The notes under the pieces were generated by a model. The model searched no databases. It worked only from the letters and a program-made list of their open reading frames with translations, and was not told where the DNA came from. Positions 1 to 27,936 of a stretch of DNA of 34,035 nucleotides are shown one piece after another (the stretch's first letter is position 1; every line of letters begins with the position of its first letter). Source of the stretch: Planctomycetaceae bacterium. Lineage in GTDB: Bacteria; Planctomycetota; Planctomycetia; Pirellulales; Thermoguttaceae. The stretch lies in assembly GCA_031274255.1 (NCBI GenBank), contig JAISQK010000145.1, positions 1-34,035 of the forward strand, read 5' to 3'. Position numbers and translations under genes: made by a program.

Positions 1-480
1 CGGTTCCATGCCGCCGGTGCTCACACCTCGTAAATACAGGATCGGAATGAACTCTTCAAGCGTTTTCGCCTTTCGCAAATACGGCGGCAAAATCTTTGAT
101 GGGAATGGTTCACGCTCCGCTTTTTCACGTTTGTCACGAGCCTGCGGCTGCGTCACTTCGATCCCGCCGACACCCGTCAAAATGGTTCGCGTTTGGCAAT
201 GGCCGTTGCGAACGATTGGTTTGTGACCGTGCTCATCGCGAACGGACTCGTATTTTGCGAGGCGGGCGGCGATCTCGCATTCCAACGCCTCGGTCAAAAG
301 ACGCTTCGCTCCCTCCCTTGCGATCTCCGTGATCACGTCCCCAAACTCCGGCATCGGTGCGATGGAAAGCGGCACTCCCTTTTCTGCGTCGTCAATGAAG
401 CGTAACAAACCTGGCACGACTCCTGACAATTTTTCATTGGCGACTGGCTTGACTTCCGACTTTCTGTTAAATTTTTTCAT
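1..480 (-). CDS. IS256-family (mutator) transposase, N-terminal part, runs off the left edge
   Basis: Reading the minus strand from the ATG at 480-478 gives 160 codons that stay open to base 1, so the gene is cut by the window edge and is not itself shown to be broken. The protein starts MKKFNRKSEVK. It then shows the usual start of IS256/Transposase_mut proteins: a stretch like ITEIAREGAKRLLTEALECE, a region with RNGHCQTRTILTGVGGIEV, and then PPYLRKAKTLEEFIPILYL with RGVSTG. These correspond to the DNA-binding N-terminal half. The first catalytic Asp of the DDE triad would lie beyond the edge. An AAGGAA stretch lies about ten bases upstream of the ATG. The family and orientation are clear from motifs recalled from IS256 relatives. 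Whether the element is intact cannot be judged here. Confidence 0.9.
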   Translation of the reverse strand, partial: MKKFNRKSEVKPVANEKLSGVVPGLLRFIDDAEKGVPLSIAPMPEFGDVITEIAREGAKRLLTEALECEIAARLAKYESVRDEHGHKPIVRNGHCQTRTILTGVGGIEVTQPQARDKREKAEREPFPSKILPPYLRKAKTLEEFIPILYLRGVSTGGMEP

Positions 481-550
481 AGCGGTGGTTCCTTGTAAAA
501 TGGTGCTTTTTGTTTGCACTCACCATTTTCCAATAACCCCGCTGCTTTTT

Positions 551-580
551 CAACTCATACACAACTTGAGAGTATAACTC
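551..580. repeat. Candidate terminal sequence of the IS256-type element
   Basis: About 70-100 bases upstream of the transposase start lies CAACTCATACACAACTTGAG followed by AGTATAACTC. The short GAGTATAACTC piece is itself nearly palindromic. Recognisable IS5 transposase coding sequence begins immediately afterwards, at about 587, so the IS256 end must lie between roughly 550 and 587. The exact terminus and any target-site duplication cannot be fixed because the other end is outside the window. Confidence 0.3.
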
Positions 581-586
581 ATATTT

Positions 587-1010
587 GCGGATGTGGAGAC
601 GCAGGAAATCCTTTGCGCGGCACAGGAAAAGGGGAGTGTTCACGACTTTAAGTTGTTGTTCAAAAGGACGATTCGGGCAGTGATGGGGTGCATCTTGTTA
701 TGAGCGGACAGCAGTTATCAAGGGTTGTTCGCCATTCCCAGGAACAGCAGGATCCCTTTATAAAAGAAATAAGAATCGTCCGTTGACGACGGAGCAAAGG
801 CCGTTGAATCGTGAGTTGTCTCGTGAGCGGATTGTCATTGAGAACATGAACGCAAAAATCAAAACGTTCAAGATCATGAGCGACAGATACCGCTGCAGAC
901 GAAAAAGACACTTCTTGCGAATGAACCTTATCTATGTTATCATCAACTACGAAACAAAATTAGAGTTTCCGAACAACTCTAATAGGTGCACATACCGGAA
1001 TTTCAAATAA
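587..1010 (+). pseudogene. IS5-family transposase remnant (C-terminal part, frameshifted)
   Basis: The plus strand carries the C-terminal third of an IS5/DDE_Tnp_4 transposase in shifted frames. From 590 it reads DVETQEILCAAQEKGSVHDF, then a frameshift. It continues as ADSSYQGLFAIPRNSRIP around 700-760, shifts again, and ends with NRPLTTEQRPLNRELSRERI, VIENMNAKIKTFKIMSDRYR and a run close to RRKRHFLRMNLIYVIINYE. The NRELSRERIVIEN block holds the last catalytic Glu and is diagnostic for the family. The 5' two thirds are missing, and the break coincides with the end of the neighbouring IS256-type element. This suggests that the IS256 copy inserted into, or recombined with, an older IS5 copy. 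The product cannot be functional. Confidence 0.85.
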
Positions 1011-1192
1011 GGAGAGTTGCCGTACCGCACAGGTGATATGCCCCGTTGATACGGCGATGAGAAGATGGTATATTGAACACGGTTGAAATTTCCGTTTTGA
1101 ATTTTCAACCGTAATTGTCTCTTTTCTTGGAAGTTAAAAGAGAATTTCTGAGATTGCAGCATCCCAAAACGAATCATTAAGGAGTAGAAAGC

Positions 1193-2356
1193 ATGTCCAC
1201 ACGCCGTGAATTTTTGAAGCAGGTCGGAATTTTAGGGACCACCGCACTGGTTTCGCAGGCGGCTTACAAAACAGGTTTCACACGGGAGGAGCAAACAATT
1301 CCCGATGTGGAAAAGGTTTTTACCGTTCCGATGGAAAAAGCCGTTCATCTTGTTCCGCCGAAACAGGTGATCACGATTCCGGATGTCGATGGTTTCAAGG
1401 TACTCAAGGGAGACTTCCACATGCACACCATTTTTTCCGACGGCCGCGTCTGGCCGGGAGAACGTGTTGTCGATGCGGTGGGAAACGGGCTGGATGTCAT
1501 TTCGATCACGGATCATATTGAGTACCGTCCGCATATCGGCGGGAAAGGTTTGCAGCTCAAGGATCGTAACGATGACTACAATATCTGGTATGATTATGCG
1601 AAAGAAACCGCCGAAAAACAGAAACTCATTCTTGTGCATGGTGCGGAAATCACCAAATCCAAGCTGCCGCCGGGACATTTCAACGCTCTGTTCATTAAAG
1701 ATGTCAATCCGATAGCGGGCGTACAGAACGATATCAACAAAATGTTCGAGGAGACCGTCAAACAAGGCGGTTTTCTGCAATGGAACCATCCCGGTTGGGG
1801 AGGGCAACTCCCCAAGGGAACACCATTGACGTTTTTCCCGCAGCATGAGGAATTTTTCCGAAACGGTTTTCTGCATGGAATTGAAACCTTCAACGGAAAG
1901 GAATTTTACCCGTCGGTCTGTCAATGGTGCGAGTCAAAGGATCTGGCGGTCATTGCCAACAGTGACATTCACGGCAGTGAGTTTGAAACCTATGGCGTCC
2001 GCAATTCACTCCGTCCGATGACCTTGATTCTTGCCAAAGAACGAACGTATGATTCCATTAAAGAAGCGTTCTTTGCCAAACGAACCATCGCCAGTGCCGC
2101 AGGAATGATTATCGGTCGTGAAAAGTGGGTCAAACCGCTCTTCAAAGCTTGTGTTGAAATCCGCAAGGAAGGCGGAAAAGGGAGACTCGTCAACAAAAGC
2201 AGCCTTCCGATGACAATCGCTTACGCCGAGCAGACGGTAAAACTCGGACCGCTTGGAACCTCGGAACTGCAACTCACTGCCGCCGAAAGCAAGCTGTGCG
2301 TCGTCAACTGGTGTACGATCGGCAGCAAATCGCTTGTGGTGGACATTGAAGTTTAA
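1193..2356 (+). CDS. Tat-exported PHP-domain metal-dependent phosphoesterase
   Basis: This 387-residue protein begins MSTRREFLKQVG, an exact twin-arginine signal (RRxFLK) followed by a hydrophobic segment to about residue 24, so it is probably exported folded. The mature part is a PHP domain, the trinuclear-metal fold shared with histidinol phosphatases and polymerase exonucleases. Visible metal ligands are H76 and H78 (GDFHMH), D107-H108 (ITDH), E152 (GAEIT), H199 (WNHPGW) and D258/H260 (NSDIHG). About 90 C-terminal residues form a probable beta-sandwich add-on. The start is supported by AAGGAG seven bases upstream. The substrate is unknown; family members cleave phosphate monoesters or nucleotides. 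Its stop codon lies one base before the epmA start, so the two are probably co-transcribed, although no functional link is evident. Confidence 0.85.
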   Translation: MSTRREFLKQVGILGTTALVSQAAYKTGFTREEQTIPDVEKVFTVPMEKAVHLVPPKQVITIPDVDGFKVLKGDFHMHTIFSDGRVWPGERVVDAVGNGLDVISITDHIEYRPHIGGKGLQLKDRNDDYNIWYDYAKETAEKQKLILVHGAEITKSKLPPGHFNALFIKDVNPIAGVQNDINKMFEETVKQGGFLQWNHPGWGGQLPKGTPLTFFPQHEEFFRNGFLHGIETFNGKEFYPSVCQWCESKDLAVIANSDIHGSEFETYGVRNSLRPMTLILAKERTYDSIKEAFFAKRTIASAAGMIIGREKWVKPLFKACVEIRKEGGKGRLVNKSSLPMTIAYAEQTVKLGPLGTSELQLTAAESKLCVVNWCTIGSKSLVVDIEV

Positions 2357-2357
2357 T

Positions 2358-3323
2358 ATGTCTTTTTTACCAACATCACCGCTGAAAAACCTTGTACGCC
2401 GCGCGGAGCTGATTCGCAGAATTCGGACGTTCTTCGACGGGCATGGTTTTATTGAGGTCGAAACGCCGGTTCTTTCACAGGATATTGTGGTTGACAGGCA
2501 TTTGGAACCGTTCACCGTTGACATCCGTAATACGGCGTATTATTTGCAGACATCGCCGGAGTTTGCGCTCAAGCGGCTTCTCGCGGCAGGCATGACGGCG
2601 ATTTATCAGATCGGTCCTGTCTTCCGCCGGGGAGATCGCGGTACGGTGCATAATCATGAATTTACGATGCTGGAGTGGTACCGTGTCGGTGAGGACTATC
2701 TTGCGGGAATGCGGTTTCTCAGTGAACTTATTGATGCAGTGTTGAATCGCGAACCGGCGGAATCTGTCACGCTACGATCACTGTTTTTGCAACATGCCGG
2801 AATGAATCCGCATACGTGTGGTGTGACGGAGTTTCAAAATTTTGCGAAGGAAACGGACATGGTTTTTCCTGGCTCTTACCGCACGGGTGAGGCATATCGT
2901 GAGGACTGGACGGACCTGATTTTTTCGGAAAGGATTCAGCCGAAACTTGGCTTTTTGCAGCCGCTGATCGTGTATGACTACCCTGACACGCAGCCGCAGC
3001 TTGCCCGGACAGTGTTTCTGCCGGAGGAAAAAATCACCGTTTCGCAACGCTTTGAACTCTTTATTGACGGTATGGAACTGGCGAACGGGTATCATGAACT
3101 GCTTGATCCGTCAGAACTCAAGCAGCGGTTTGAGCGAATCAACACGCTCCGGAAACTTGACGGGAAAAAGAGTCTTCCCGTGGAAAGCCGGCTTCTCGCC
3201 GCGATGCGGCACGGACTTCCGCCATGCAGCGGTACGGCACTGGGACTCGACCGTCTTGTGATGGTCGCTCTCGGCGCGAAGAGCATTGACGAGGTGATTC
3301 CTTTCCCGTTGGAAAACGCATAA
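2358..3323 (+). CDS. epmA: EF-P beta-lysine ligase EpmA (PoxA/GenX, lysyl-tRNA synthetase-like)
   Basis: A 321-residue class II aminoacyl-tRNA synthetase catalytic core without the N-terminal anticodon-binding domain of LysRS, matching the roughly 325-residue length of E. coli EpmA. Motif 1 is near residues 15-40 (FIEVETPVLS). Motif 2 is near 89-108, with FRRGDRGTVHNHEFTMLEWY. Motif 3 is near 291-302 (SGTALGLDRLVM), where EpmA proteins have Ala and LysRS has Gly. The family attaches (R)-beta-lysine to Lys34 of elongation factor P, which relieves ribosome stalling at polyproline. The frame is open further upstream, but the ATG at 2358 overlaps nothing and follows the PHP stop by one base, and the extra upstream residues would be a PHP shadow. 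Its substrate protein (efp) and the aminomutase (epmB) lie about 2.3-4 kb downstream. Confidence 0.93.
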   Translation: MSFLPTSPLKNLVRRAELIRRIRTFFDGHGFIEVETPVLSQDIVVDRHLEPFTVDIRNTAYYLQTSPEFALKRLLAAGMTAIYQIGPVFRRGDRGTVHNHEFTMLEWYRVGEDYLAGMRFLSELIDAVLNREPAESVTLRSLFLQHAGMNPHTCGVTEFQNFAKETDMVFPGSYRTGEAYREDWTDLIFSERIQPKLGFLQPLIVYDYPDTQPQLARTVFLPEEKITVSQRFELFIDGMELANGYHELLDPSELKQRFERINTLRKLDGKKSLPVESRLLAAMRHGLPPCSGTALGLDRLVMVALGAKSIDEVIPFPLENA

Positions 3324-3403
3324 AAAAGAAGGATTTCGGAAGGGGTGATACAAAGAGAAACATGTTTCTATGGATCATCTTTTCCAACCGTTTGCGTTGG
3401 AGG

Positions 3404-3522
3404 TGTTGTTCCGCTCGCGGACTCCAGCGGTCGCGAGCCGCGACGGGGCAACATGCTGTTCCATCGCAGTTGCCTCATGGTCACTGCGTTCCATTCGGCC
3501 TCCGATGGAAAATCTTTCCAAC
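3404..3522 (-). repeat. Mosaic intergenic repeat, copy A
   Basis: This gene-free block begins GTTGTTCCGCTCGCGGACTC, contains GCGAGCCGCGACGGGGCAAC and GCCTCATGGTCACTGCGTTC, and ends with the near-palindrome GGAAAATCTTTCC. Each phrase recurs elsewhere in the window, in either orientation (around 4160-4190, 4460, 17900-17960, 18360-18380, 28900-28945, 30583-30600). The strand is given relative to the GAACGCAGTGACCATGAGGC phrase. It lies 80 bp after the epmA stop and 13 bp before the end of the IS630 relic. No promoter or gene is seen in it. Confidence 0.8.
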
Positions 3523-3534
3523 GAATTCTATACC

Positions 3535-4070
3535 TTATAACGCCATTAATTGCCCCTTTTTAAGTTTTTGGAAATTGAGTTGCATGAGTGTGTCGAGTTC
3601 GGATTGATAATCGGTTTCGACACGGCTCAGACAATCATTGATGCCCGACGTAAAATATTGTAAAGACATTTCTTCTTAACCAATTTCCATAACCGTTCCA
3701 TCCAATTCAAATTCGGGGAATAGCTCGGAAGAAATTGTAACGTGATTCCCAAGTCCTTCGCCAAGCCCTCCACGAGTTTGCAACGTTGATAAAGTGCATT
3801 GTCCAGTACGATTACGATTGGCCGCCCCGCCTATTGCACGGACAATTTTCGCAACATCTCGCATACGGTCGCCGCCGTAATGTCACCGTCGTTCACGACG
3901 ACGGTCCATTGTTCGCTGATCGCGTTGCAGGCTCCCGGAACATTCCAAAGTTTTCGCCCCGAAGGACTGCGAAGGAAAATTCGGGTGAAACACCATAAGT
4001 ACCCAAGAAACGCCGCTTGAACAAAATGGACTCCATCCATGAACAACACCGTCTCGCCCGCTTTTGACCG
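3535..4070 (-). pseudogene. IS630-family transposase remnant (DDE domain with stop and frameshift)
   Basis: Read on the minus strand, this is the catalytic C-terminal part of an IS630/DDE_3 transposase. VLFMDGVHFVQ (first Asp at 4037-4035) is followed by FLGYLWCFTRIFLRSPSGRK and LWNVPGACNAISEQW. An in-frame TAG sits at 3833-3831. After it the same frame resumes with RPIVIVLDNALYQ (second Asp) and FLPSYSPNLNWMERLWK (Glu of the triad). The frame then slips near 3655-3675, in an A-rich stretch, and continues as YFTSGINDCLSRVETDY to a stop at 3537-3535. All three acidic catalytic residues are present, but the stop and the frameshift make it inactive. The N-terminal helix-turn-helix half is absent and is replaced exactly by repeat copy B. 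No inverted-repeat ends were identified. Confidence 0.87.
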
Positions 4071-5645: not shown

Positions 5646-6215
5646 CTATTCTTTCACGCGTTCAATGTATGCGCCGGTTCGAGTGTCAACACGGATCAGC
5701 TCGCCCATCTCGACAAAGTTCGGAACGTAAATCTCCGCACCGGTATCGACTTTCGCCGGTTTCGTCACATTGGTCGCCGTATTTCCGCGGACGCCCGGCT
5801 CGGTGTACTCCACCCGAAGCACAACGTGATTCGGCGGCGTCATTCCTATCGGCGCATTATTGAAAAGGAGCATCTTACAATCCATGTCCGACTTCAGATA
5901 CTTCCACGCATCGTCAATCGCGTCCTTGCTCAACTCGTACTGTTCGTAGGTTTTGTTGTCCATGAAGATGTATTCGTCTCCCTGGGCATAGAGGAATTTG
6001 GCGTCGATTTCGCCGATGTCCGCCGCTTCCAAAGCGTCGCCGCTTTTGTAGGTGCGGTCGAGAATCGTCCCTTTGAGAAGGTTGCGGAGCTTGCATTTGT
6101 AAAGCGCCTGACCTTTGCCCGGCTTCACAAAATTGCACTCCGCCATAATATAAGGGTCGCCGTCAATCTGAACTTTAAGACCTTTGCGAAAATCACTTGT
6201 GCTGTAACTGGCCAT
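5646..6215 (-). CDS. efp: Elongation factor P
   Basis: A 189-residue protein of standard EF-P length and three-domain layout: N-terminal KOW-like domain to about residue 65, then two OB folds. EF-P binds the ribosome between the P and E sites and restores peptide bond formation at consecutive prolines. The modification loop reads VKPGKGQALYKCKLRNLLKG, with the conserved lysine at exactly K34. That is the residue beta-lysylated by EpmA in the gamma-proteobacterial pathway. In the Arg32-type (rhamnosylated) EF-Ps this position is Arg, so this protein belongs to the lysine type. The C-terminus has the usual VRVDTRTGAYIERV ending. It is transcribed away from epmB, and their start codons are about 60 bp apart, so the short gap probably carries both promoters. 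Confidence 0.97.
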   Translation of the reverse strand: MASYSTSDFRKGLKVQIDGDPYIMAECNFVKPGKGQALYKCKLRNLLKGTILDRTYKSGDALEAADIGEIDAKFLYAQGDEYIFMDNKTYEQYELSKDAIDDAWKYLKSDMDCKMLLFNNAPIGMTPPNHVVLRVEYTEPGVRGNTATNVTKPAKVDTGAEIYVPNFVEMGELIRVDTRTGAYIERVKE

Positions 6216-6276
6216 GAATCAATTCCTTCTTATAATCTATAGGTGTTTCAAATCTGTTTTTAATGGTTGTAAAAAA

Positions 6277-7275
6277 ATGTCCGAGTCCGACTTTTGGCAA
6301 AAGCAGCTTCAGGACGCCGTGACCGATCCTGCGGAACTCGTGCGTTCCCTCCGGCTTCCCGAAGACGCCGTGTCGGCTGAGGCGGCTCGCCGTTATCCGG
6401 TTTTTGTGACTCGAAGTTACCTCCGCCGCATGGAACCGGGAAACTTGAACGATCCGTTGCTTCTTCAAGTGCTTCCCCGGGAAGCGGAACTTTCCGAACA
6501 TGCGGATTTCTGTTGCGACCCGCTCGGTGAGCTGGAAAATCCCGACCAATGTCCTGATGTTCTCCAAAAATATCAGGGCCGCGTACTTCTTTTGACAACG
6601 GATTCCTGTGCCGTCCACTGCCGATTCTGTTTCCGGCGTCATTTTCCGAAAAAACATCACTCACTTGAGCATGTTTTTACAGAAAACCGCCTTCGAAATC
6701 CTGACATGCGCGAAGTGATTCTCAGCGGAGGCGACCCGTTGATGCTCACCGACCGACAACTGAAAAAGCTGTTTTATTATATGGAAGAGTTGCCGCATGT
6801 GAATAGGGTCAGGGTTCACACTCGATTGCCGGTCATGATTCCGGAACGGGTGACGGAGGAATTGCTCGGTCTTTTTCAAAAGTTTCGGCAGTCTGCGGCA
6901 AACAGGTCGGCTTTCCTGGTTCTGCATGTGAATCATCCGAACGAACTCGCCCCGGAGGTGCTTGCGGCGGTCGGAAAAATGGCCGATTCCGGTATGCCTG
7001 TCCTGAGTCAGACCGTGCTTTTGAAAGGAATCAACGATAATTTTGCGACGCTTTTCGAACTTTTTGAAAAACTTGTCAACAATCGGGCGATTCCTTACTA
7101 CCTTCATCAGCTTGACCGTGTTGCCGGAGCTTCCCATTTTGAAGTTCCGATGGAGCAGGGGCTGTGTCTTTTACGGAAACTTCAGGATTCCCTTCCGGGC
7201 TTTGCCGTTCCGCGATACGTTCAGGAAACCGCCGGAATGCCGGGTAAGGTGCATCTGCCGCGGAGCGGTGAGTAG
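6277..7275 (+). CDS. epmB: EF-P lysine 2,3-aminomutase EpmB (KamA/YjeK family radical SAM)
   Basis: A 332-residue radical-SAM enzyme that converts (S)-alpha-lysine to (R)-beta-lysine, the donor used by EpmA. The iron-sulfur motif CxxxCxxC is at C111, C115 and C118 (CAVHCRFCFRRHFP). It is followed by SGGDPLML and the PLP-binding segment region, with a lysine near VLLKGIND. The length matches E. coli EpmB (342 residues) and lacks the long ends of clostridial lysine aminomutases. The frame is open back to an ATG at 6214, but that would overlap the efp start. The ATG at 6277 begins MSESDFWQKQLQDAVTDP, which aligns with EpmB starts, although no strong Shine-Dalgarno sequence precedes it. It is divergent from efp. 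Confidence 0.95.
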   Translation: MSESDFWQKQLQDAVTDPAELVRSLRLPEDAVSAEAARRYPVFVTRSYLRRMEPGNLNDPLLLQVLPREAELSEHADFCCDPLGELENPDQCPDVLQKYQGRVLLLTTDSCAVHCRFCFRRHFPKKHHSLEHVFTENRLRNPDMREVILSGGDPLMLTDRQLKKLFYYMEELPHVNRVRVHTRLPVMIPERVTEELLGLFQKFRQSAANRSAFLVLHVNHPNELAPEVLAAVGKMADSGMPVLSQTVLLKGINDNFATLFELFEKLVNNRAIPYYLHQLDRVAGASHFEVPMEQGLCLLRKLQDSLPGFAVPRYVQETAGMPGKVHLPRSGE

Positions 7276-7315
7276 AGGAGTAGAATGGAGTCCATCTGAC
7301 GTGATTGTTCCGGCA

Positions 7316-7350
7316 AAAACGTTCCACCCTTTGTACGGGTGGAACTTAAA
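7316..7350 (-). terminator. Strong intrinsic terminator for the 7421-8548 gene
   Basis: A perfect 9-bp stem, GTTCCACCC (7321-7329) with GGGTGGAAC (7337-7345), and loop TTTGTAC. Read on the minus strand, the stem is followed directly by GTTTTTGCC, giving the U-run. On the plus strand TTAAAGTTT follows, so it may also serve epmB weakly. Confidence 0.8.
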
Positions 7351-7420
7351 GTTTAACCGGTATTGGCGGCGGCCTTTGACAAGCGTGCCGCTTCACATCG
7401 GACAATGAGAAAATCTGACA

Positions 7421-8548
7421 TTATTCATCATCTGTTTCGTCATCTTCCTCTTCTTCATCGTCCATGTCTTCTTCGTACTCCTCATCTTCCCCGTCTCCCT
7501 GATCAAAGATTGAGCCGTTGAGTATCGCATTCGTGATCAGTGCCAGTGCCTGTCCATGTTTTTCAAAGAATTTCGCGTTGATTTCCAGTAATAACTGATT
7601 CTTTTTCACCTGGGGAAACAAATCTTTCAGGATTGGTTTCAAAAGAAGTTCGGAGACTTCTTCTTCTATTTCGCTGTCAAGAGTTTCCGGCAAAAGCGTC
7701 AAAAGTGTTTTTGAAAAAGCGGCGGCTTTTTGGGCGGAATTTTCATTGTCGAATTGGGTAACAACACTCAACCGCAATGCGGCAGGATCACATCCCAATG
7801 AGGCAAATTCCACTTTCGGGAGCAATTTCAAGAATGTGTTGATTTGTTCTTCGTCAGCGATGTCCGCAAGCGATTCGGACTGTTCGAGAACAGACGAAAG
7901 CAAGACCTCCAAACCGGCGGTCACTGCTGCGGACGGCGTATAAACGAATTGAACCGGAAGTTTCGAGTGAAGTTTCAGAGCCGCATCAATTTCAGGACGT
8001 TTTTCTGCCGGCAGTTCGTCGAACGCTTCGAGGAATGTTTCCGCTTCCTCATCGCTTGCGCAGTAAACAAAATAGGCCCAGCCGTCTTTCGTACCGGCAA
8101 AATCGAGCGAAGCTTCCTGAAATTGCTCTTCGACATCTTCGTCCATCTCCGTTTGACCGGGAATCGCAACAATCAACGGGTAGTCCTCCAGTAATTCTAT
8201 GACCGAAATCACGTAAATTTCATTGATGCCGGCTTCAAGGAATTTGTTTAACGCTTGCTTGGCAAGTTTTTTCTGACCGGCAACCTGTGTTTTGATTTCT
8301 TTTTTAGTCTCTGCCAACGCATCTTCATCGTCTTCGAGAGCGGCGGACGCCGTCGCAACCACCTGTTGTGCAATGGCATCGACATCAAGACCTTTCAGAT
8401 TGATGCGCCCCAGAAATAACGTGTTTTCCTTCAGCAGCGGAGCGATCGCAGAAGTTTCCGCCCGGACGGTGGAAAGACCGGCAAGGGAAATCAGCATGAC
8501 CGTCAGGACGGCGTGAAAAGGAACGTGGAAACGGATTCTTTTTGACAT
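7421..8548 (-). CDS. Secreted protein of unknown function with a very acidic C-terminal tail
   Basis: A 375-residue protein if it starts at the ATG 8548-8546, which has AGGAG eight bases upstream. The frame extends farther upstream, but without a comparable ribosome site. The start MSKRIRFHVPFHAVLTVMLI and the following ALA-type region form a Sec signal peptide ending near VRA. The mature part is alpha/beta with many Glu and Lys residues, for example the helical DEDALAETKKEIKTQVAGQK. It contains phrases such as YLIVAIPGQTEMDEDVEEQF-like segments that suggest a repeated alpha/beta domain, but no motif I can name. The last 25 residues are almost entirely Asp and Glu (DEEYEEDMDDEEEEDDETDD), typical of calcium-binding or solubilising tails. 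Proteins of this look, with a variable DUF3352-like fold, are frequent in planctomycetes. Any function would be a guess. Confidence 0.75.
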   Translation of the reverse strand: MSKRIRFHVPFHAVLTVMLISLAGLSTVRAETSAIAPLLKENTLFLGRINLKGLDVDAIAQQVVATASAALEDDEDALAETKKEIKTQVAGQKKLAKQALNKFLEAGINEIYVISVIELLEDYPLIVAIPGQTEMDEDVEEQFQEASLDFAGTKDGWAYFVYCASDEEAETFLEAFDELPAEKRPEIDAALKLHSKLPVQFVYTPSAAVTAGLEVLLSSVLEQSESLADIADEEQINTFLKLLPKVEFASLGCDPAALRLSVVTQFDNENSAQKAAAFSKTLLTLLPETLDSEIEEEVSELLLKPILKDLFPQVKKNQLLLEINAKFFEKHGQALALITNAILNGSIFDQGDGEDEEYEEDMDDEEEEDDETDDE

Positions 8549-9166
8549 TGGTTTTTCTCCTGTTTGTAAAGGATGGGAAATGGTCAGGCGGCGGAACCGC
8601 CCGATACAAGTTGTTAAATACTGCAAAAACGTGTTACCGAAACTCGTGCTGAGGAAAACGAGCGGAACGGTGACACAAGAAATTGTTACGCCAAAACGCC
8701 GGAAACGAACCGGTCTTGTTTTGAACAGACAGAACGAAGCCCAAAGAATATTTTCTGCAATGCTCCGTCGTAAATATCGAAAGAACCGGGATATTCCGGT
8801 GAGTCGATTAAGAAGATTTCGTAAAATGGGGGGGGGGGTAACTGGAAGGTTTTGCATTGTTTACACCGTTTTGGAGTGTTATTCTAGGAATGGAAGTGTT
8901 ATCGGTACGGAATCATAAAAACTTGGCGAAAAATATCTTTTTTTCCGTGAACCTTTTCCTTGCATGCGGCGTATAACTTGTGGAAATGTCGCATGTTACG
9001 GAAAGAATCCCTTGTGTAGTCTATCTACATTGTTTATTTTAAAGGCGGAAAATAATCATGAGGTAAATAATACGCTTTGTGATCATGAAACCTTGCAGAA
9101 AAGAAGATTTCCGATAAAATGCAGCCTGGAATCGACAACACTGTGAAAATTTGGAGTATATTTGTG
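8549..9166. other. Gene-free stretch with an 11-G homopolymer
   Basis: No reading frame here has a ribosome site, family motif or convincing composition. The stretch is the divergent region between the secreted protein (leftward) and the zinc-ribbon gene (rightward). The one striking detail is a run of eleven G at 8828-8838. A small inverted repeat (TGTAG/CTACA) lies near 9015-9030. Confidence 0.5.
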
Positions 9167-9195
9167 TTGTGGTGTCTCAGCCGTCTGATTATACT
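9167..9195 (+). promoter_or_regulatory. Candidate promoter of the 71-residue zinc-ribbon gene
   Basis: TTGTGG (9167-9172), a 17-base spacer, then TATACT (9190-9195), about 80 bases before the start codon. It fits a sigma-70-type promoter. Confidence 0.45.
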
Positions 9196-9277
9196 GGAAA
9201 TGATGAGTATTTTCAAAAATGTCCGTGTGTTGACGGAAGACACTGTCAGAAAAAAGGAGTTGGAGGAATCATAATCA

Positions 9278-9493
9278 ATGAGTGCAGTGACTTATTTTAT
9301 TCAGTCGTGCCCCACATGCGGGCGAAGGTTGCAGATTCGTGTCGAATATTTGGGGCGGGATGTGAGCTGCTATCATTGCAGTGCAAGATTTCCCGCCGAC
9401 TGCACGCCGCCCGGCGTGAGTGTTCCTTCTTTAACACTCAGTGATTTGACTGCCGGTAATGATTCCCTTCTGGACAACTGTACCTGTCGATGA
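9278..9493 (+). CDS. Small zinc-ribbon protein
   Basis: A 71-residue protein, preceded by GGAGGAATCATAATCA, which puts a ribosome site about ten bases from the ATG. Residues 11-34 form a zinc ribbon with CPTCG and CYHCS, so C11, C14, C31 and C34 with 16 residues between the pairs. The hydrophobic stretch RVEYLGRDVSCYHC is the usual strand between the knuckles. The remaining 35 residues are polar, with Thr, Ser and Pro, and end in CTCR. Small proteins of this kind are very common in planctomycetes, often at the start of longer membrane proteins; this one has no further domain. It is alone between two leftward genes. The function is unknown; nucleic-acid binding or protein docking are possibilities only. 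Confidence 0.7.
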   Translation: MSAVTYFIQSCPTCGRRLQIRVEYLGRDVSCYHCSARFPADCTPPGVSVPSLTLSDLTAGNDSLLDNCTCR

Positions 9494-9537
9494 TTTCCGC
9501 GGCATCAATACCCCCGACGGGTCAAACATTCGTTCAT

Positions 9538-10599
9538 TCATTTGCCGCCGACAATCGGGACGGCACGGGGAAAAATGTAGTAAAACCGAGGCGTGACCAG
9601 GTTGTTCGCCAATTCCGGTGAAAGCATTGCCGATGGACGGACCTCTTGGGATTTCGAGCCGAGCAGATAGTCCATCGCCGTTTTGGGAAGAACGTATTTC
9701 ACCGTTTTGTAACTTCCGGCAGACAGGTTGGCGAGTTCTCCGGCACGCGACACCGCATCTTCGACGAAACCTATTTTGTCGACAAGTCCGTTATCGACCG
9801 CCTGAAGTGCCGTGTAAACCTGACCGGTCGCCAGCTCCTCAATTTTTGCCGGAGTCAGTTGGGGACGTCCTTCATGCACAACTTCCTTGAAACGCAGGAA
9901 CATGTCATCAATGAGTTGCTGAAAGACCTCTTTTTCTTCCGGTGTCATTTTCCGGGTCGGATCGCCCATGGACTTCATCGGACCGCTGGTAACCGGATTC
10001 GAGTGCAGCCCGATTTTGTCGCACAGTTCGGAAAAATCATAGAGGCTGGCAATGACACCGATAGAACCGGTGGTCGTTGTCCGTTCGGCGAAAATTTCCT
10101 GACCTGTCACGGAAAGATAGTACCCTCCGCTGGTGGCCATGCTTCCCATACTGACAACGACAGGCACGTTTTTATTTGCTTTGAACTGCTGAATTTTGTG
10201 GTGATAGTAGTCGCTTCCCGAAACCGTTCCGCCGGGAGAATCAATCCTCAGCACGACCGCTTTCACCTTCGGATCGGTTTCGGCGGCATTGAGCTGTTTG
10301 ATGAACGAACCTTCCTCATCACCGACAATCACACCGGAAAGCGTAATGACGGCGATCTTGTCTGTTGCCTTGTCCGGACCGGAAACGTGTTTCTCCGTCA
10401 CCTCGAATCCGGCATCTCCGTGAAACAGGTATCCCAGCATTGAAAAACAGCCTGCCATCACAATACAAATAACGGCGATTTTCAGAAAAAACGAGAGCAG
10501 CCCCGGCAAGCAGCCGTTGACCGCCGGCGAACCTCCGGACGGTTGACGGTAAACAACGGCGGGACGCTCATGATGATCGTGAGTTTGATCTTGTGACAT
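9538..10599 (-). CDS. sppA: Signal peptide peptidase SppA (short form)
   Basis: A 353-residue serine protease of the SppA/S49 family, which clips signal peptides left in the membrane. A polar N-terminus is followed by one membrane helix at about 33-57 and one protease domain, so it is the single-domain type seen in Bacillus rather than the tandem E. coli form. RIDSPGGTVSGSD (119-131) gives the oxyanion region. MGSMATSGGYYLS (151-163) carries the nucleophile S157, and K199 in SGPMKSMGDPTR is the general base, so the Ser/Lys dyad is intact. A GAAGGAAT site precedes the ATG. It lies 47 bp downstream of the PD-(D/E)XK gene on the same strand, so co-transcription is likely, though a functional link is not obvious. 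Confidence 0.92.
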   Translation of the reverse strand: MSQDQTHDHHERPAVVYRQPSGGSPAVNGCLPGLLSFFLKIAVICIVMAGCFSMLGYLFHGDAGFEVTEKHVSGPDKATDKIAVITLSGVIVGDEEGSFIKQLNAAETDPKVKAVVLRIDSPGGTVSGSDYYHHKIQQFKANKNVPVVVSMGSMATSGGYYLSVTGQEIFAERTTTTGSIGVIASLYDFSELCDKIGLHSNPVTSGPMKSMGDPTRKMTPEEKEVFQQLIDDMFLRFKEVVHEGRPQLTPAKIEELATGQVYTALQAVDNGLVDKIGFVEDAVSRAGELANLSAGSYKTVKYVLPKTAMDYLLGSKSQEVRPSAMLSPELANNLVTPRFYYIFPRAVPIVGGK

Positions 10600-10646: not shown

Positions 10647-11291
10647 TTAATCGCTATAATCAGAGGTGTCAATACTCAATTCTTCGATTCTTTTCAAATG
10701 AAGTTTTTTGTTTTCGTATTCCAGCAACACGCTGAAATCAAAGGCAAAACTGTCATGAAGAATGTTCCCCTCTTCTTTATCATCATGACCGTATTGCAAA
10801 GAGGCAGTCATGACGCCACTCCCTTTGACGTGAATATCGCCGTTTTCCACCGAGATTTCATCAATCACGATATCAGAGACGGAATCGAAAGAAGAATGAC
10901 CTGGAAGTTTTTCAATCTCATCAGGTGGATTATTGGAAAAATAACCGGTCAGTAAATCTTCAAGTTCCGCAATGACCAGTTTCTTTTCTCTGGGAGGTGC
11001 CGCAATTGCCACTAGAAGTTTATAATTCCCCAATGACTTCACATAGCTTGCAAGCTGTTCAATATTTTCTTTTTGTCCTGAAGACAGTGTATTATTTCGC
11101 AGTTTGACTTCAATAACGAGATTTTCTTCTCCTTTTTGAGCCAGAATGTCCGCGTAGAATCTTCCCAAGAAAACATTTTTCCGCACCTGATACCCGTGTT
11201 TTCTGTAATCGTCACATATCTGATTGATCGCAGCATCATAAAAATACTCAGTCAGGTTTCGTTCTTTAATTTCCATTGTTTTCGATACCAA
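10647..11291 (-). CDS. PD-(D/E)XK nuclease-fold protein of unknown role
   Basis: A 214-residue protein. Residues 10-105 look like a restriction-endonuclease fold. A helix (YDAAINQICDDYRKHGY) precedes D48 in GRFYADILAQ, then E61 and K63 in LVIEVKLRNN, which gives the D-x12-ExK catalytic pattern of PD-(D/E)XK nucleases, followed by helices and a LLVAIAAPP strand. The C-terminal half (about 130-214) is beta-rich (IVIDEISVENGDIHVKGSGV) and probably a separate domain. The ATG at 11291 overlaps the end of the RusA-like gene by 26 bases. A second in-frame ATG at 11276 overlaps by 11; neither has a clear ribosome site, so translational coupling is likely. The active-site residues are visible. The target and partner are unknown; a defence or repair role is inference. 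Confidence 0.7.
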   Translation of the reverse strand: MVSKTMEIKERNLTEYFYDAAINQICDDYRKHGYQVRKNVFLGRFYADILAQKGEENLVIEVKLRNNTLSSGQKENIEQLASYVKSLGNYKLLVAIAAPPREKKLVIAELEDLLTGYFSNNPPDEIEKLPGHSSFDSVSDIVIDEISVENGDIHVKGSGVMTASLQYGHDDKEEGNILHDSFAFDFSVLLEYENKKLHLKRIEELSIDTSDYSD

Positions 11292-11727
11292 ATTTGTAAA
11301 GTGAGTAACTTAAATGACCACATTCAATATAGATAATATGATCTTCCTCTTCTATAGCGGACAGTAATTGGACAACCATATTTTCTTTGAGGTTTGAAAA
11401 ATCCAATAAAGTGGGAGACGGGCGTGAAATATCGAAAGTTCCGGCAACTCTCATTTTTACCTGGTTGTCATTGGCATATAATTTTCCGGTCAAAGAATCC
11501 CAGACCGGTTTACTGATGTTATCGGCGTCAATACCACTGTTTTTTTTGTAAAAATAGTAAACGATTCCATACAAATCACTGTTCAACAACGCAAAATCAG
11601 GCCAAAACAATTCCAATGCCCGGTGAATATGCCAGGCATAAGAATCTTTTTCAGGTATATTCCCTTTATTTGGCGATCTATAACTGTTAAACGATTTTGC
11701 CTTTTTTTTAACAATAAAATTATACAT
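11266..11727 (-). CDS. RusA-like Holliday junction resolvase family protein
   Basis: A 153-residue protein starting at the ATG 11727-11725, 25 bp after the stop of the large fusion gene. Residues 65-90 read GIDADNISKPVWDSL followed by TGKLYANDNQV. This matches the RusA core, where E. coli has DLDNLQKAAFDAL and DDAQV; D67, D69 and D87 correspond to the three catalytic acids. RusA enzymes are dimers that cut four-way junctions, usually phage-borne. The 60 residues after the core are longer than in RusA and end in an unusual segment rich in Glu and Ile. The region is clearly more AT-rich than the flanking genes, as is the next gene, hinting at acquisition as a pair. No phage structural genes are nearby. 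Confidence 0.75.
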   Translation of the reverse strand: MYNFIVKKKAKSFNSYRSPNKGNIPEKDSYAWHIHRALELFWPDFALLNSDLYGIVYYFYKKNSGIDADNISKPVWDSLTGKLYANDNQVKMRVAGTFDISRPSPTLLDFSNLKENMVVQLLSAIEEEDHIIYIECGHLSYSLYKFGIENNGN

Positions 11728-11752
11728 TGTTTCTGATGTCTGAAAATGGCGA

Positions 11753-14700
11753 TCAATACGTGTCCATTTCCTTTTGAAGGCGTCTGAGTTCGCGGGCAGT
11801 GGTGTCAATGGTGTAGCGGATTTCCTCCTCATTGTGCGCCGACGTGATGAAGAACCGCAGCCGCGCCGCCCTTTCCTCCACCGCCGGATAAAGGATCGGC
11901 TGCACATTGACCCCGCAATCATACAGTGCCTTCGACATCATCACGCTCAACATGGAATTTCCCAAAATCACTGGAATCACCGCGGAATCCCTGCTCAGAC
12001 CGGTATTGAGTCCCTGTTCTTTGGCCAGTGTCAGGAAAAGTCTGCTGTTTTCGCGGAGTTTGTCCACTCGCTGCGGTTCCTGTTCCAACAGTTTCAGTGC
12101 CGCAAGGGCCGCCGCGGTATTGGGAGGCGAAAGTCCGACGCTGAACACAAAACCGGGTGCCGTGAATTTCAGGTACTCAATCAGTTCCTTGCGGCCGGAA
12201 ATGTAACCGCCGCAACTGGCGAAGGTTTTACTCAGTGTACACATCCAGAGATCGACATCTTTCCGGTCAACGTGAAAATGTTCGCCGAGACCTCGTCCGG
12301 TTTTTCCCAAAACGCCGATGGAATGCGCCTCATCAATCATAATCAACGTTTTGTACTGTTTTTTCAGGGCAATCATCCGCTCCAGATCAGGGGAGTCGCC
12401 GTCCATGCTGTAAACTCCCTCCGCGACCATCAGGACACGGCGGTACTCTCCGCGATGTTTTTTCAGAATCCATTCCGCGGCGTCAAGGTCGTTGTGCGGG
12501 AACGGACGCCGTCTTGCGCCGCTCAAAATCGCTCCCTGAACGATACTGTTGTGCGAAAGAGCGTCCATTAAAATCATGTCATTGTCATTAAGGAGATGTC
12601 CGATGACGGATTCATTGGTGGAATGTCCGCCGACCATGACGATGGTGTCTTCCGTTCCGAGAAATTTGGAGATTTCGTTCTCCAGTTCGCGGTGCAGCGG
12701 CTTTTCGCCGGAAACAAGACGGCTCGCCGAAACACTGGTTCCATATCTGGCACACGCTTCCTGGGCCGCTTTCGTGACCACAGGATCGCCCGACATGTTC
12801 ACGTAATTGTAAGAGGAAAAGTTGATCAGTTCCTTGCCGGCAATAATGGTTTTATCGTTCGTCACCGACTCATGAACATCAAAGAAACGGTTGAGCCCTA
12901 ACGAATCCGCCAAGTCAAGCCGTTGACGCAGGGCCTTGTATTCCGGGAATTGTGCGATTTCGTGCCAGTCGTCCGGAATCGCTTCAATCGTAGGAAGTTC
13001 CGCGCGGACCACCGGACGCATTCCGCCGCCGAGATACTTTTGAACAGCTTCCACCACTTCACGGGCGGTGTACAGTGTCGGAAGCACCGATTCAGGAAAC
13101 TGACCGCCGAAACGGTCTTCCAGTGACGCGAGAACTTCCATCCGTTCGAGAGAATCAAGTCCGAGCGTGGTAATGTCGGTGTCAAGCGTGAGTCCCTGTG
13201 TGCGTTCCCGTCCGACTTTGCGGACTTCTTCCAGAACCGTTTCCGCCGTATTTTCGAATGTGCCGGGAAAGACCGTGGTCGTTTTTCCCGACGCGGCGGG
13301 GTCTTCCGAAAGAACCGGCATTTGATCCTTGAGAACCTTCGCCCGTTCCTCCGCTTCCGCGGCACGAGCCTTGAGCCGCTCCGCAATCAGACGGTCGCCG
13401 GGTGCCACGAGTTTGATAGAATCGTCACGGTCGAGAAATTCTTTCTTGGCAAGCGGCGAACCTTGCGCCGTCCACTGTTCAATCCTTTTGAGCGTTCCCG
13501 CGATGAAATCTTCACGGCATCGGTGACGCTGGATTTTACCGCTTGATGTCTTCGGAATGCTCCCCGATTTGAGCAGCACGATCGCATCCGGCGCGATCTC
13601 ATGTTCCTGGGCCACCGCCGTGCGGATCTCGTTGAAAAGTCTGTCAAGTGTTTCACGCTCCAGTGTGAATGTCCGGTCAATCTCCTGAACAATGACCAGC
13701 CGTTCGGAATGTCCGTCATCCACCATGAACGCACCGCCGCTTCCGATACGAAGTGCCGGATCCACTTTTTGCACCGTCGCCTCAATGTCCTGCGGATAAA
13801 CATTGACGCCGTGAATGATAATCAGGTCCTTGATTCTTCCGGTGATGAAAAACTCATCGTTTTGCACGAAACCGAGGTCACCTGTCCGCATGAAAGGTCC
13901 CTCTCCGGTGTCTTTGATGTAAGCCCGAAAGGTGTAGTCTGTCGCTTGTTCCGCGTTCCAATACCCTTGCGCGACACTCGGACCGCACACCCAAATCTCA
14001 CCGACATGTCCTTCTTCACACTCCCGTTCCGTTTCCGGGTCAACGATGGCCGTCCGCTGATCAATCAGGTTACGTCCGCTGGAAACGAGCCATCGGACTT
14101 TTTCCGCGTTGTCCGATGCCGGAACCGCCGCTCCATTGGCCAGTGAGTCGGCATCAATCGCGCGGATGAGCGGTTTTTTCCCGAGTATCCCTCCTGTCAC
14201 AATCAACGTCGCTTCCGCAAGACCGAAACACGGATAAAACGACTCGTACCGGAAACCGCAACGTTCAAATTTCCGTGCGAAATTATCCAGTGTCTCCGCC
14301 TGAACCGGTTCCGCTCCGTTGAAAGCTACCTTCCAGTAGCTTAAATCCAACAGATCCAACTGCTCCTCCGAAATCTGCCGCACACACAAATCGTACGCGA
14401 AATTCGGTCCGCCGCTGGTCGACGCCTGATAACGGGTGATTGCGGAGAGCCATCGGAACGGTTTTTGCAGAAACGAAAGCGGCGACATCAGAATATTGGG
14501 ACACCCGCAATAAATCGGCTGTAAAATTCCGCCGATCAGTCCCATGTCGTGGTAACTCGGCAGCCAAAAGACGCCCCGATTCGAACGGGTGTGTTCAAAA
14601 GCGTCATGAATCAACCTTGAATTATGAATTAAATTTCCGTGACTGAGAATCACTCCTTTAGGAACACCGGTTGAGCCGGACGTGTATTGAAGAAACGCAG

Positions 14701-15250
14701 TTGTGAACTCGGAAATTTCCGGGGAAACCCAGTTGGCTTCGATTCCGGTTTCCATGTCCGTCGTTGCGAGCCACTCCAGCCGATTCAAGTCAGGTGTGTC
14801 CGAAATCAAATCCCTGACCCGCTCCAAAACCTCGCCTGTCGTCAGCGCGACACTTGCTTCCGCGCTCGACGCCACCGCCTGAATTCTCACCATCGACCGG
14901 TTCCGCCGCGGCGGATAAACCGGCACGGCAATCGCTCCGGCGTACAGACATCCGAAAAATGCGGCGATAAAGTCAATCCCCGGCGGATAAAGGAGGAGTA
15001 CGCGTTTTCCTTCCATTTTGCGGATTTGCAACCACGCTCCGATCGCACGGGAACGCCGGTCCAACTCGAAATAGGTCAGCGGAATTTCCTCGTCCACCCC
15101 ATTGGCAAGGTAAATGAACGCCACGTCTTCCTGCTGAACATGCGTCCGGTAGCGGAGCAGCTCAACAAGTGTGGAAGGACCAAAAATTGTGGGAGAAAAT
15201 TTTTCGTTGCGCAATTTAACTGCCTCTCTAGAGCAAGTGGAGTGATTCAC
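11753..15250 (-). CDS. Fatty acyl-AMP ligase / acyl carrier / alpha-oxoamine synthase fusion protein
   Basis: A 1165-residue three-part enzyme. Residues 30-595 are a fatty acyl-AMP ligase: ATP loop YTSGSTGVPKG (189-199), TGDLGF (456-461), GRIKDLIIIHGVNVYP (471-486), and the terminal catalytic K572 in PKTSSGKIQR. Residues 665-742 are an acyl carrier domain with GLDSLE, where S700 is the phosphopantetheine site. Residues 780-1160 are a PLP-dependent alpha-oxoamine synthase (the family of serine palmitoyltransferase, AONS and ALAS) with DEAHSIG (973-979) and the PLP lysine K1008 in TLSKTFASCGG. The likely reaction is loading a fatty acid as acyl-AMP, moving it to its own ACP, and decarboxylative condensation with an amino acid to give a long-chain amino-ketone, as in sphingoid-base synthesis. 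The amino acid is not predictable. The GTG start at 15250 lacks a ribosome site; a TTG at 15214 has GAGAGG upstream. Confidence 0.9.
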   Translation of the reverse strand: MNHSTCSREAVKLRNEKFSPTIFGPSTLVELLRYRTHVQQEDVAFIYLANGVDEEIPLTYFELDRRSRAIGAWLQIRKMEGKRVLLLYPPGIDFIAAFFGCLYAGAIAVPVYPPRRNRSMVRIQAVASSAEASVALTTGEVLERVRDLISDTPDLNRLEWLATTDMETGIEANWVSPEISEFTTAFLQYTSGSTGVPKGVILSHGNLIHNSRLIHDAFEHTRSNRGVFWLPSYHDMGLIGGILQPIYCGCPNILMSPLSFLQKPFRWLSAITRYQASTSGGPNFAYDLCVRQISEEQLDLLDLSYWKVAFNGAEPVQAETLDNFARKFERCGFRYESFYPCFGLAEATLIVTGGILGKKPLIRAIDADSLANGAAVPASDNAEKVRWLVSSGRNLIDQRTAIVDPETERECEEGHVGEIWVCGPSVAQGYWNAEQATDYTFRAYIKDTGEGPFMRTGDLGFVQNDEFFITGRIKDLIIIHGVNVYPQDIEATVQKVDPALRIGSGGAFMVDDGHSERLVIVQEIDRTFTLERETLDRLFNEIRTAVAQEHEIAPDAIVLLKSGSIPKTSSGKIQRHRCREDFIAGTLKRIEQWTAQGSPLAKKEFLDRDDSIKLVAPGDRLIAERLKARAAEAEERAKVLKDQMPVLSEDPAASGKTTTVFPGTFENTAETVLEEVRKVGRERTQGLTLDTDITTLGLDSLERMEVLASLEDRFGGQFPESVLPTLYTAREVVEAVQKYLGGGMRPVVRAELPTIEAIPDDWHEIAQFPEYKALRQRLDLADSLGLNRFFDVHESVTNDKTIIAGKELINFSSYNYVNMSGDPVVTKAAQEACARYGTSVSASRLVSGEKPLHRELENEISKFLGTEDTIVMVGGHSTNESVIGHLLNDNDMILMDALSHNSIVQGAILSGARRRPFPHNDLDAAEWILKKHRGEYRRVLMVAEGVYSMDGDSPDLERMIALKKQYKTLIMIDEAHSIGVLGKTGRGLGEHFHVDRKDVDLWMCTLSKTFASCGGYISGRKELIEYLKFTAPGFVFSVGLSPPNTAAALAALKLLEQEPQRVDKLRENSRLFLTLAKEQGLNTGLSRDSAVIPVILGNSMLSVMMSKALYDCGVNVQPILYPAVEERAARLRFFITSAHNEEEIRYTIDTTARELRRLQKEMDTY

Positions 15251-15600: not shown

Positions 15601-16218
15601 ATGACAATCCGCGTAATTTGCAAAAAATGTAACAGTAAGTTGGACGCGAAAGACGAACTTCTCGGACAGGTAAAATTGTGTCCGAAATGCAAAAATCCAG
15701 TGAAAATCATTCCTGAAACACCGCCGCGGGAAGTTCCGATGAAAGCGGAAATCATTTCTGAAAATCGGACAGATAATAATCCGCCACTCGCCGCGGGCAA
15801 GATTTCCCGTGAGTTGAATGTTCACAGCAAATACTGCATCTGCACGGAAGAGCGTCTTGTCGCAACGTGGGAAATCGGCAAAGGCTGGGCTTACAATGCC
15901 GGAACAGGTTTCGTCAATGCCGCGAAAAACAGCAACATCATTCCTGAAACCGGCGACTTCACACTGGTGGAAATTGCGGTCGAAGAGGCGGACGACGGTG
16001 TGAAACGCCCTTCCCATGTCAAGGCGTATGAACTGACCTCACGCCGGGCGCTTCCCGCGATTGCCCAGGGAGACAATCCGATTCTGGAAAAGATCACTTC
16101 GGAAAAGACTTTGTCGAAAATTCAGAAAGGACTCGTGCTTGATTTTCTGCGAACCGTCTACATGCCGGACTTCCTCTATGAATCCAAAGGCTTGATTCAT
16201 TTCCTGCGGGAGGATTGA
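15601..16218 (+). CDS. Zinc-ribbon protein of unknown function
   Basis: A 205-residue protein, start preceded by GCAAGGGGACATTT. The N-terminus is a zinc ribbon with C7, C10, C27 and C30 (CKKC and CPKC), the same 16-residue inter-pair spacing as in the small protein at 9278-9493. A Pro/Glu-rich linker covers about 35-65. The rest (70-205) is a soluble alpha/beta domain containing LVATWEIGKGWAYNAGTGF and KAYELTSRRALPAIAQGDNP, which I do not recognise. There is no signal peptide or membrane helix, so it is probably cytoplasmic. It is followed by two membrane-protein genes on the same strand, but the next has its own promoter, so they are not necessarily one operon. Confidence 0.75.
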   Translation: MTIRVICKKCNSKLDAKDELLGQVKLCPKCKNPVKIIPETPPREVPMKAEIISENRTDNNPPLAAGKISRELNVHSKYCICTEERLVATWEIGKGWAYNAGTGFVNAAKNSNIIPETGDFTLVEIAVEEADDGVKRPSHVKAYELTSRRALPAIAQGDNPILEKITSEKTLSKIQKGLVLDFLRTVYMPDFLYESKGLIHFLRED

Positions 16219-27629: not shown

Positions 27630-27842
27630 GACTTTCCCCCCCGGGAGTGAGGTTTCCACTCCTCGGAGTGAGACTTCCGCTCCCGGGAGTAGGACTTTCA
27701 CTCCGAGGAGCGAGACTTCCACTCCCGGGAGTAGAACTTTCTCTCCCGGGAGCGAGGTTTCCACTCCCGGGAGTAAGGCTTCCGCCCCCGGGAGTGAGGC
27801 TTTCCCTCCCGGGAGCGAGACTGTCCCTCCTCAGGAGAGAAA
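27621..27842. repeat. Tandem array, 10 units of exactly 21 bp with a palindromic core (array 3)
   Basis: Ten consecutive units start at 27621, 27642, 27663, 27684, 27705, 27726, 27747, 27768, 27789 and 27810, plus a partial eleventh. The consensus is CGGGAGTGAGGYTTCCACTC plus C. Across each unit junction sits the palindrome CTCCCGGGAG or a version CTCC-NN-GGAG, where only the central two bases change (CG, TC, GA). Alternatively GGAGT pairs with ACTCC within a unit, around a loop of nine. The array begins with the stop codon of the esterase, extends into the leader of the ABC gene, and encodes nothing with a ribosome site. Confidence 0.92.
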
Positions 27843-27936
27843 CGGGGGAACGGGGCGGCGGACATTGCGGGGACCGCACCGGGGGCCGTGGGATTCGGCG
27901 GGATGGCGAGGTTTCAAATTCAGAAAGACTTTTCCC

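What the first reader, a model, noticed from the sequence alone, without database searches (positions are those of the whole stretch)
11753..15250. Single-chain FAAL-ACP-oxoamine synthase
The three activities used in bacterial sphingoid-base synthesis (an acyl-activating enzyme, a carrier protein and a serine palmitoyltransferase-like synthase, separate genes in organisms such as Caulobacter) are fused here in order of use. The active residues K572, S700 and K1008 are all in place. It lacks a ketoreductase, so the product would be a long-chain amino-ketone. This could begin a sphingolipid, sulfonolipid or signalling oxoamine pathway in a planctomycete-like organism.
Basis: partly seen in the sequence, partly recalled or inferred. 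Interest (0 to 1): 0.7.

Follow-up and report, generated by a model that had tools for sequence, protein, structure and literature searches.

The report
Single-chain serine palmitoyltransferase of planctomycetes
One long planctomycete protein carries all three machines that bacteria usually keep on separate genes to start a sphingolipid, and genomes that have it nearly always also have a gene for the next step, so these bacteria probably make sphingolipids.

Summary
The minus-strand ORF 11753-15250 (1165 aa) is an uninterrupted FAAL-ACP-alpha-oxoamine synthase (AOS) fusion, and K572, S700 and K1008 are invariant in 39 full-length relatives. The organism is a planctomycete. The gene is conserved in its order (91 of 109 genomes), as a single gene without an operon. 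The architecture is not new: A-CP-AOS was listed for Blastopirellula marina in 2013 (PMC3870968) with no function assigned.

The AOS is not a classical bacterial SPT. It belongs with AOS enzymes that unload polyketide-synthase ACPs (RkpG, SgaB-like, PKS-AOS fusions; 48-56% identity). A Pseudomonas SgaB of this kind was shown to be an L-serine-specific SPT (PMC12134224). The SulA marker lysine is valine (V1038), which argues against sulfonolipid. The genome also encodes two tandem ceramide-synthase-like acyltransferases and a CerR-like reductase. The acyltransferase gene co-occurs with the fusion across the order (Fisher p = 1e-8, not corrected for phylogeny).

Best explanation: free fatty acid to acyl-AMP to acyl-ACP in cis to 3-ketosphinganine, which enters a ceramide pathway. 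Domains and residues are shown; substrates and product are inferred. Rated a new member of a known kind, with a newly testable function.

The parts
11753..15250 (-). FAAL-ACP-AOS fusion gene, 1165 aa, GTG start
13472..15172 (-). fatty acyl-AMP ligase domain (aa 27-593), closest solved relative Synechococcus olefin synthase FAAL 7r7e, 50% identity
13535..13537 (-). K572 codon (adenylation lysine of the FAAL)
13046..13240 (-). acyl carrier protein domain (aa 671-735)
13151..13153 (-). S700 codon (phosphopantetheine attachment)
11771..12940 (-). PLP-dependent alpha-oxoamine synthase domain (aa 771-1160), SgaB/RkpG type
12227..12229 (-). K1008 codon (PLP Schiff-base lysine)
12137..12139 (-). V1038 codon: position that is Lys in SulA/CFAT and Ala in classical bacterial SPT

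Best explanation
The protein is a one-chain serine palmitoyltransferase system. The FAAL domain activates a free long-chain fatty acid to acyl-AMP and loads it on the phosphopantetheine arm at S700 of the ACP in the same chain. The AOS domain binds PLP at K1008, forms an external aldimine with L-serine, and condenses it with the acyl-ACP with loss of CO2, releasing 3-ketosphinganine. Elsewhere in the genome, CerS-like N-acyltransferases (G000:C347) and a CerR-like NAD-epimerase-type reductase (G000:C356) would convert it to a dihydroceramide-type membrane lipid. Shown: domains, invariant catalytic residues, order-wide conservation, AOS clade, co-occurrence with the CerS-like gene. Inferred: amino acid, chain length, cis loading, and the later steps.
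For: Domain calls and fold matches: FAAL against 7r7e Z 54, AOS against SPT 3a2b Z 50. K572, S700, K1008, H900, D973, H976, R1132 and N815 are invariant in 39-41 homologues. The AOS is 50% identical to the AOS of a Pseudomonas cluster (L099). That cluster's gene order (PKS, AOS, four genes, SDR) matches the published sgaA-sgaB...sgaC cluster, whose SgaB is an SPT with 'virtually exclusive' L-serine preference (PMC12134224). The two share clade signature residues A842, H876, N901, V1038, G1039 and F1134. The AOS group excludes classical SPT, SulA, Kbl and BioF in trees (99/96 support; AU p = 0.016 against grouping with bacterial SPT). The CerS-like gene is present in 98 and the family AOS in 91 of 109 order genomes; both absent in 10 genomes of 5 families; Fisher p = 1e-8. 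The CerS-like identity rests on synteny: in Roseomonas mucosa it lies between lptF/lptG and an NTP transferase, as CC_1154 (cerS) does in Caulobacter, in the ACP-SPT cluster; G000's copy is 35% identical. The CerR-like gene adjoins the CerS-like gene in 19 order genomes.
Against: No lipid or enzyme data for any member. The fusion has no conserved operon linking it to the CerS-like or CerR-like genes. CerR-like is only 24-30% identical to an E. coli CerR-type protein and is not detected in about 40% of order genomes. The CerS assignment is by synteny, not by assay. Eight order genomes have CerS-like but no close family AOS. Amino-acid specificity cannot be read safely from sequence.
Confidence: 0.7

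Rival explanations
1. Same chemistry but with glycine, alanine or another amino acid, giving a 1-deoxy-type or other amino-ketone rather than a sphingoid base.
For: The AOS family is diverse in amino acid; the closest PDB match by E-value is the promiscuous Thermus AOS. NCBIfam SPT models are all far below cut-off.
Against: The biochemically studied enzyme of this clade (SgaB) strongly prefers L-serine over alanine and glycine (PMC12134224), and the clade signature residues are shared.
Confidence: 0.14
2. The product is a specialised metabolite, or a lipid anchor or carrier for a surface polysaccharide, as in rkp capsule loci, not a bulk membrane sphingolipid.
For: The closest AOS relatives lie in capsule or PKS clusters. 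The FAAL-ACP pair resembles a PKS loading module. PKS-AOS versions occur in the same order.
Against: In the order the gene is monocistronic, nearly universal and without biosynthetic or capsule neighbours, and it co-occurs with CerS-like genes.
Confidence: 0.12
3. Sulfonolipid start: cysteate acyl-ACP transferase (SulA/CFAT-like).
For: Same reaction class, and acyl-ACP is the SulA donor (PMC9304779).
Against: The diagnostic Lys281 of SulA is V1038 here; the 41 fusions have V, A, T, C or I in at least 39 rows and Lys in none of the listed ones. SulA/CFAT form a separate supported clade.
Confidence: 0.02
4. Housekeeping AOS for biotin (BioF) or threonine/glycine metabolism (Kbl), since no other AOS was found in this genome.
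For: It is the only AOS hit in G000; TIGR00858 bioF is the best AOS NCBIfam score.
Against: The score is below the bioF cut-off (333 against 426). The fused long-chain FAAL does not suit pimelate. Relatives carry separate 400-aa AOS genes beside the fusion. G000 is 87% complete.
Confidence: 0.02

Closest known systems
A-CP-PLP2 (Aminotran_1_2) protein A3ZWL3 of Blastopirellula marina, and A1ZVW4 of Microscilla marina, in Milano et al. 2013 (PMC3870968)
   Same: Same domain order: adenylation, carrier protein, AOS-type PLP domain
   Different: Only listed there; specificity (for A3ZWL3) and product given as '?'. Their sequences were not compared here
SgaB, PKS-coupled SPT of Pseudomonas fluorescens MYb115 (PMC12134224)
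   Same: Same AOS clade as its apparent plasmid orthologue (50% identity, shared signature residues)
   Different: SgaB is a separate protein fed by the iterative PKS SgaA; here a FAAL-ACP supplies the acyl chain in cis
RkpG-type AOS of rhizobial capsule loci
   Same: 48% identical AOS, next to an RkpA-like PKS and an RkpH-like SDR
   Different: Separate gene; PKS-fed; capsule context
AasR + AcpR + Spt + CerR + CerS of Caulobacter (PMC9386255, PMC11324152)
   Same: Same division of labour: fatty acid activation, dedicated ACP, SPT; likely CerS and CerR homologues in the genome
   Different: Five separate genes; Spt of a different AOS lineage (31-32% identity for the relatives compared here)
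Olefin synthase FAAL (Synechococcus, PDB 7r7e)
   Same: FAAL domain 50% identical over about 565 aa; also a loading domain
   Different: Feeds a PKS, not an AOS
SulA / cysteate acyl-ACP transferase (PDB 7u7h, 28eh)
   Same: AOS fold and reaction class, acyl-ACP donor
   Different: Lys281 replaced by Val; separate clade

Membership tests
Fatty acyl-AMP ligase | AMP-binding domain with the catalytic lysine near the C-terminus and close similarity to proven FAALs over full length | tested here: met
   PF00501 plus C-terminal domain; K572 invariant; 50% identity and Z 54 to 7r7e over 565 residues
Fatty acyl-AMP ligase | Rejects CoA and passes acyl to holo-ACP | not testable with these tools
   Needs an enzyme assay; the adjoining ACP makes it likely
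Alpha-oxoamine synthase (fold type I PLP) | PLP lysine, Asp to the pyridine N, two His, carboxylate-binding Arg | tested here: met
   K1008, D973, H900, H976, R1132 conserved in the fusions and references
SgaB/RkpG-type PKS- or FAAL-coupled AOS | Groups with these enzymes apart from other AOS, with shared residues | tested here: met
   Trees (99/95 including a Nocardia AOS; 81/91 without); signature residues; 50% identity to the sga-like AOS
SgaB/RkpG-type PKS- or FAAL-coupled AOS | L-serine specificity | not testable with these tools
   Known for SgaB only (PMC12134224)
Classical bacterial SPT (Sphingomonas/Caulobacter, Sphingobacterium) | One clade with known bacterial SPTs; NCBIfam SPT models over cut-off | tested here: not met
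   NF047600, NF047599, NF047603 at 303, 255, 204 bits against cut-offs 640, 500, 670; joint clade rejected, AU p = 0.016
SulA / cysteate acyl-ACP transferase | Lys at SulA position 281 | tested here: not met
   V1038; clade separate
BioF / Kbl | NCBIfam equivalog cut-off | tested here: not met
   bioF 333 against 426; Kbl 306 against 460
Bacterial ceramide pathway of the host | CerS and CerR homologues in the same genome | tested here: inconclusive
   CerS-like pair G000:C347:5488-7770 (35% to the Roseomonas copy in CerS position); CerR-like G000:C356:3025-4053; activities not tested

The most novel reading that the evidence does not exclude
Eukaryotic LCB2, the catalytic SPT subunit, descends from or is sister to this PKS/FAAL-coupled AOS clade rather than to the classical bacterial SPTs. 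Planctomycete fusions would then be living relatives of the source of eukaryotic sphingolipid synthesis, in a phylum that already draws attention for eukaryote-like lipids such as sterols. Tree support is 99/96, but the alternative is not rejected (AU p = 0.064).
Probability: 0.12. Interest if true: 0.75.

Novelty: new member of a known kind. Interest (0 to 1): 0.45.

Why it matters
It gives a concrete, testable reason to expect sphingolipids in a whole order of planctomycetes, where the SPT would be missed or misnamed because it is fused and outside the known SPT families. It shows that acyl supply to this AOS clade is interchangeable: an iterative PKS in some lineages, a FAAL-ACP in others. 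A single-chain enzyme is also a convenient unit for making sphingoid bases from free fatty acids.

Tried and rejected
Chance or misassembly: rejected, full-length fusion in most order genomes. Operon logic: neighbours of 33 loci clustered, no conserved biosynthetic partner. Ketoreductase by SgaC-type SDR: hits at most 37% in all genomes, not specific; the E. coli CerR-type query was also weak, and the planctomycete CerR-like family was found through its adjacency to CerS-like genes. Sulfonolipid: rejected by the Lys281 marker and tree. LCB2 link: 99/96 in the tree, but grouping LCB2 with bacterial SPT is not rejected (AU p = 0.064), and no ALAS rows were included. Literature: no paper found on planctomycete sphingolipids made by this protein; the Black Sea study counted 138 planctomycete MAGs with Spt-like proteins (PMC11334938), with no mention of fusions. 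Structure model (pLDDT 79.7): helix 619-641 sits where the AOS N-terminal helix should be, while the real one (about 770-790) has low confidence; treated as a monomer-modelling artefact. No solved structure resembles the CerS-like proteins beyond weak GNAT hits.

Full report
What is there. The ORF is on the minus strand, 15250 to 11753, 1165 aa, with no internal stop. Pfam finds an AMP-binding domain (37-431) with its C-terminal part (475-592), a phosphopantetheine carrier domain (671-735) and Aminotran_1_2 (807-1149). K572, S700 and K1008 are at the codons 13537-13535, 13153-13151 and 12229-12227. In an alignment of 39 full-length relatives (48-74% identity) all three are invariant.

How common it is. 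All 60 relatives searched have a match, and full-length fusion hits head the list. In 109 genomes of the order, nearly all at least 90% complete, 91 have the AOS of this family, mostly inside an ORF of 1100-1300 aa. Across the phylum the family is rare outside the order. The window's genome has no other AOS and only weak other adenylating-enzyme hits at E <= 0.001. The order is probably Pirellulales; this is an inference, from the same architecture reported in Blastopirellula marina and from the title of L029.

Already catalogued. Milano et al. 2013 list A-CP-PLP2 proteins, including Blastopirellula marina A3ZWL3, with unknown specificity and product (PMC3870968). So the fusion as a domain layout is not new; its function is open.

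FAAL and ACP. The FAAL is 50% identical to the Synechococcus olefin synthase FAAL over its whole length (Z 54; sequence alignment). FAAL-ACP is a common loading pair of such assembly lines (general knowledge of these enzymes).

Which oxoamine synthase. Against the plasmid collection the AOS finds, in order, a cyanobacterial PKS-AOS fusion (55%), a Methylobacterium AOS (56%), a Streptomyces KS-AT-ACP-AOS fusion (52%), a Pseudomonas capsule-like locus (50%) and RkpG-like proteins of rhizobial capsule loci (48%); classical AOS follow at 33-37%. Trees place it with these and with eukaryotic LCB2 (99/96), apart from classical bacterial SPT, SulA/CFAT, Kbl and BioF. A joint clade with bacterial SPT is rejected (AU p = 0.016). 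In the same order the same AOS type also occurs at the end of a KS-AT-DH-ER-KR-ACP polyketide synthase (L173; L175 is a similar one elsewhere in the phylum). In another planctomycete family (f46) an AMP-binding-ACP-AOS protein has an adenylation domain only 22-24% identical to this one, so the layout probably arose more than once.

Link to proven chemistry. Pseudomonas fluorescens SgaB was shown to be an SPT with near-exclusive preference for L-serine (PMC12134224). Its AOS is 50% identical to the window's, and both share A842, H876, N901, V1038, G1039 and F1134, which differ in classical SPT. The position that is Lys281 in SulA (PMC9304779) is V1038.

Later steps. The E. coli protein YghO, beside a FAAL-CerR-ACP-SPT operon, has homologues throughout the order. 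In Roseomonas mucosa the homologue lies between two lptF/lptG permeases (with a sterol desaturase gene) and an NTP transferase, in a cluster with ACP and SPT; Caulobacter has CC_1156 and CC_1155 (LptF2/LptG2), CC_1154 (CerS) and CC_1153 (nucleotidyltransferase) in that order (PMC11324152). So YghO-type proteins are most likely CerS. G000 has two in tandem (G000:C347:5488-7770), one 35% identical to the Roseomonas protein. In the 109 genomes: both present 90, both absent 10 (five families), CerS-like only 8, AOS only 1; Fisher p = 1e-8. This is not corrected for phylogeny, but in four of those five families other genomes have both genes. A CerR-like epimerase-type reductase adjoins the CerS-like gene in 19 genomes and has one homologue in G000 (C356:3025-4053). 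It is only 24-30% identical to the E. coli CerR-type protein, so this step is the weakest.

Mechanism. Fatty acid + ATP gives acyl-AMP on the FAAL; transfer to the ACP arm; the PLP-serine aldimine on the AOS attacks the thioester; CO2 is lost and 3-ketosphinganine is released; N-acylation and reduction follow elsewhere. Domains, residues, conservation and co-occurrence are shown. Serine, chain length, cis transfer and ceramide as end product are inferred.

Structure. AlphaFold2 gave mean pLDDT 79.7. Foldseek and VIA-align match the two catalytic parts to FAAL and AOS structures. The fold does not decide the amino acid.

Verdict. A real, conserved, single-chain route into sphingoid bases, in a known architectural kind, with a function that is now specific enough to test.

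Noticed in passing
G004:C187 (L141:3736-5013 and neighbours): A stand-alone AOS with Lys at the SulA-281 position, grouping with SulA/CFAT (100/98), next to CerR-like and CerS-like genes: a possible sulfonolipid locus in a planctomycete.
   Followed up: partly
L058 (G031:C27), 254-3961: A fusion whose AOS has lost the PLP lysine (His) and the stacking His (Ala), although its FAAL is still 60% identical to the window's: apparently a dead or repurposed AOS.
   Followed up: partly
G007:C146, G010:C29, G013:C96, G016:C566 and others: The tandem CerS-like genes are fused into one ORF of about 800 aa in several relatives.
   Followed up: partly
L178, L179 (family f46): AMP-binding-ACP-AOS proteins with an unrelated adenylation domain: probable independent origin of the same layout.
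   Followed up: partly
L096 (Legionella lytica plasmid) 5863-10018: CFAT-type AOS beside a large 'phosphosulfolactate synthase' gene; query FAAL and AOS parts both matched in this stretch: likely cysteate and capnine-like synthesis in Legionella.
   Followed up: partly
window 27581-27872: Array of 21-bp tandem repeats, at least ten copies in register, open as heptad-like repeats on both strands.
   Followed up: no
window 3458, 4083, 17912, 18626, 28731, 28875, 30615, 30991: Dispersed intergenic repeats of 50-80 bp (motifs such as CCGAATGGAACGCAGTGACCATGAGGC); two 54-bp copies are identical.
   Followed up: no
window 10647-11291 and 11266-11922 (-): Downstream of the fusion: a Holliday-junction-resolvase/pPIWI-associated-nuclease-like protein and a RusA-like protein.
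   Followed up: no
window 15601-16218 (+): Divergent zinc-ribbon-like protein of unknown function, found beside the fusion in 9 related loci.
   Followed up: no
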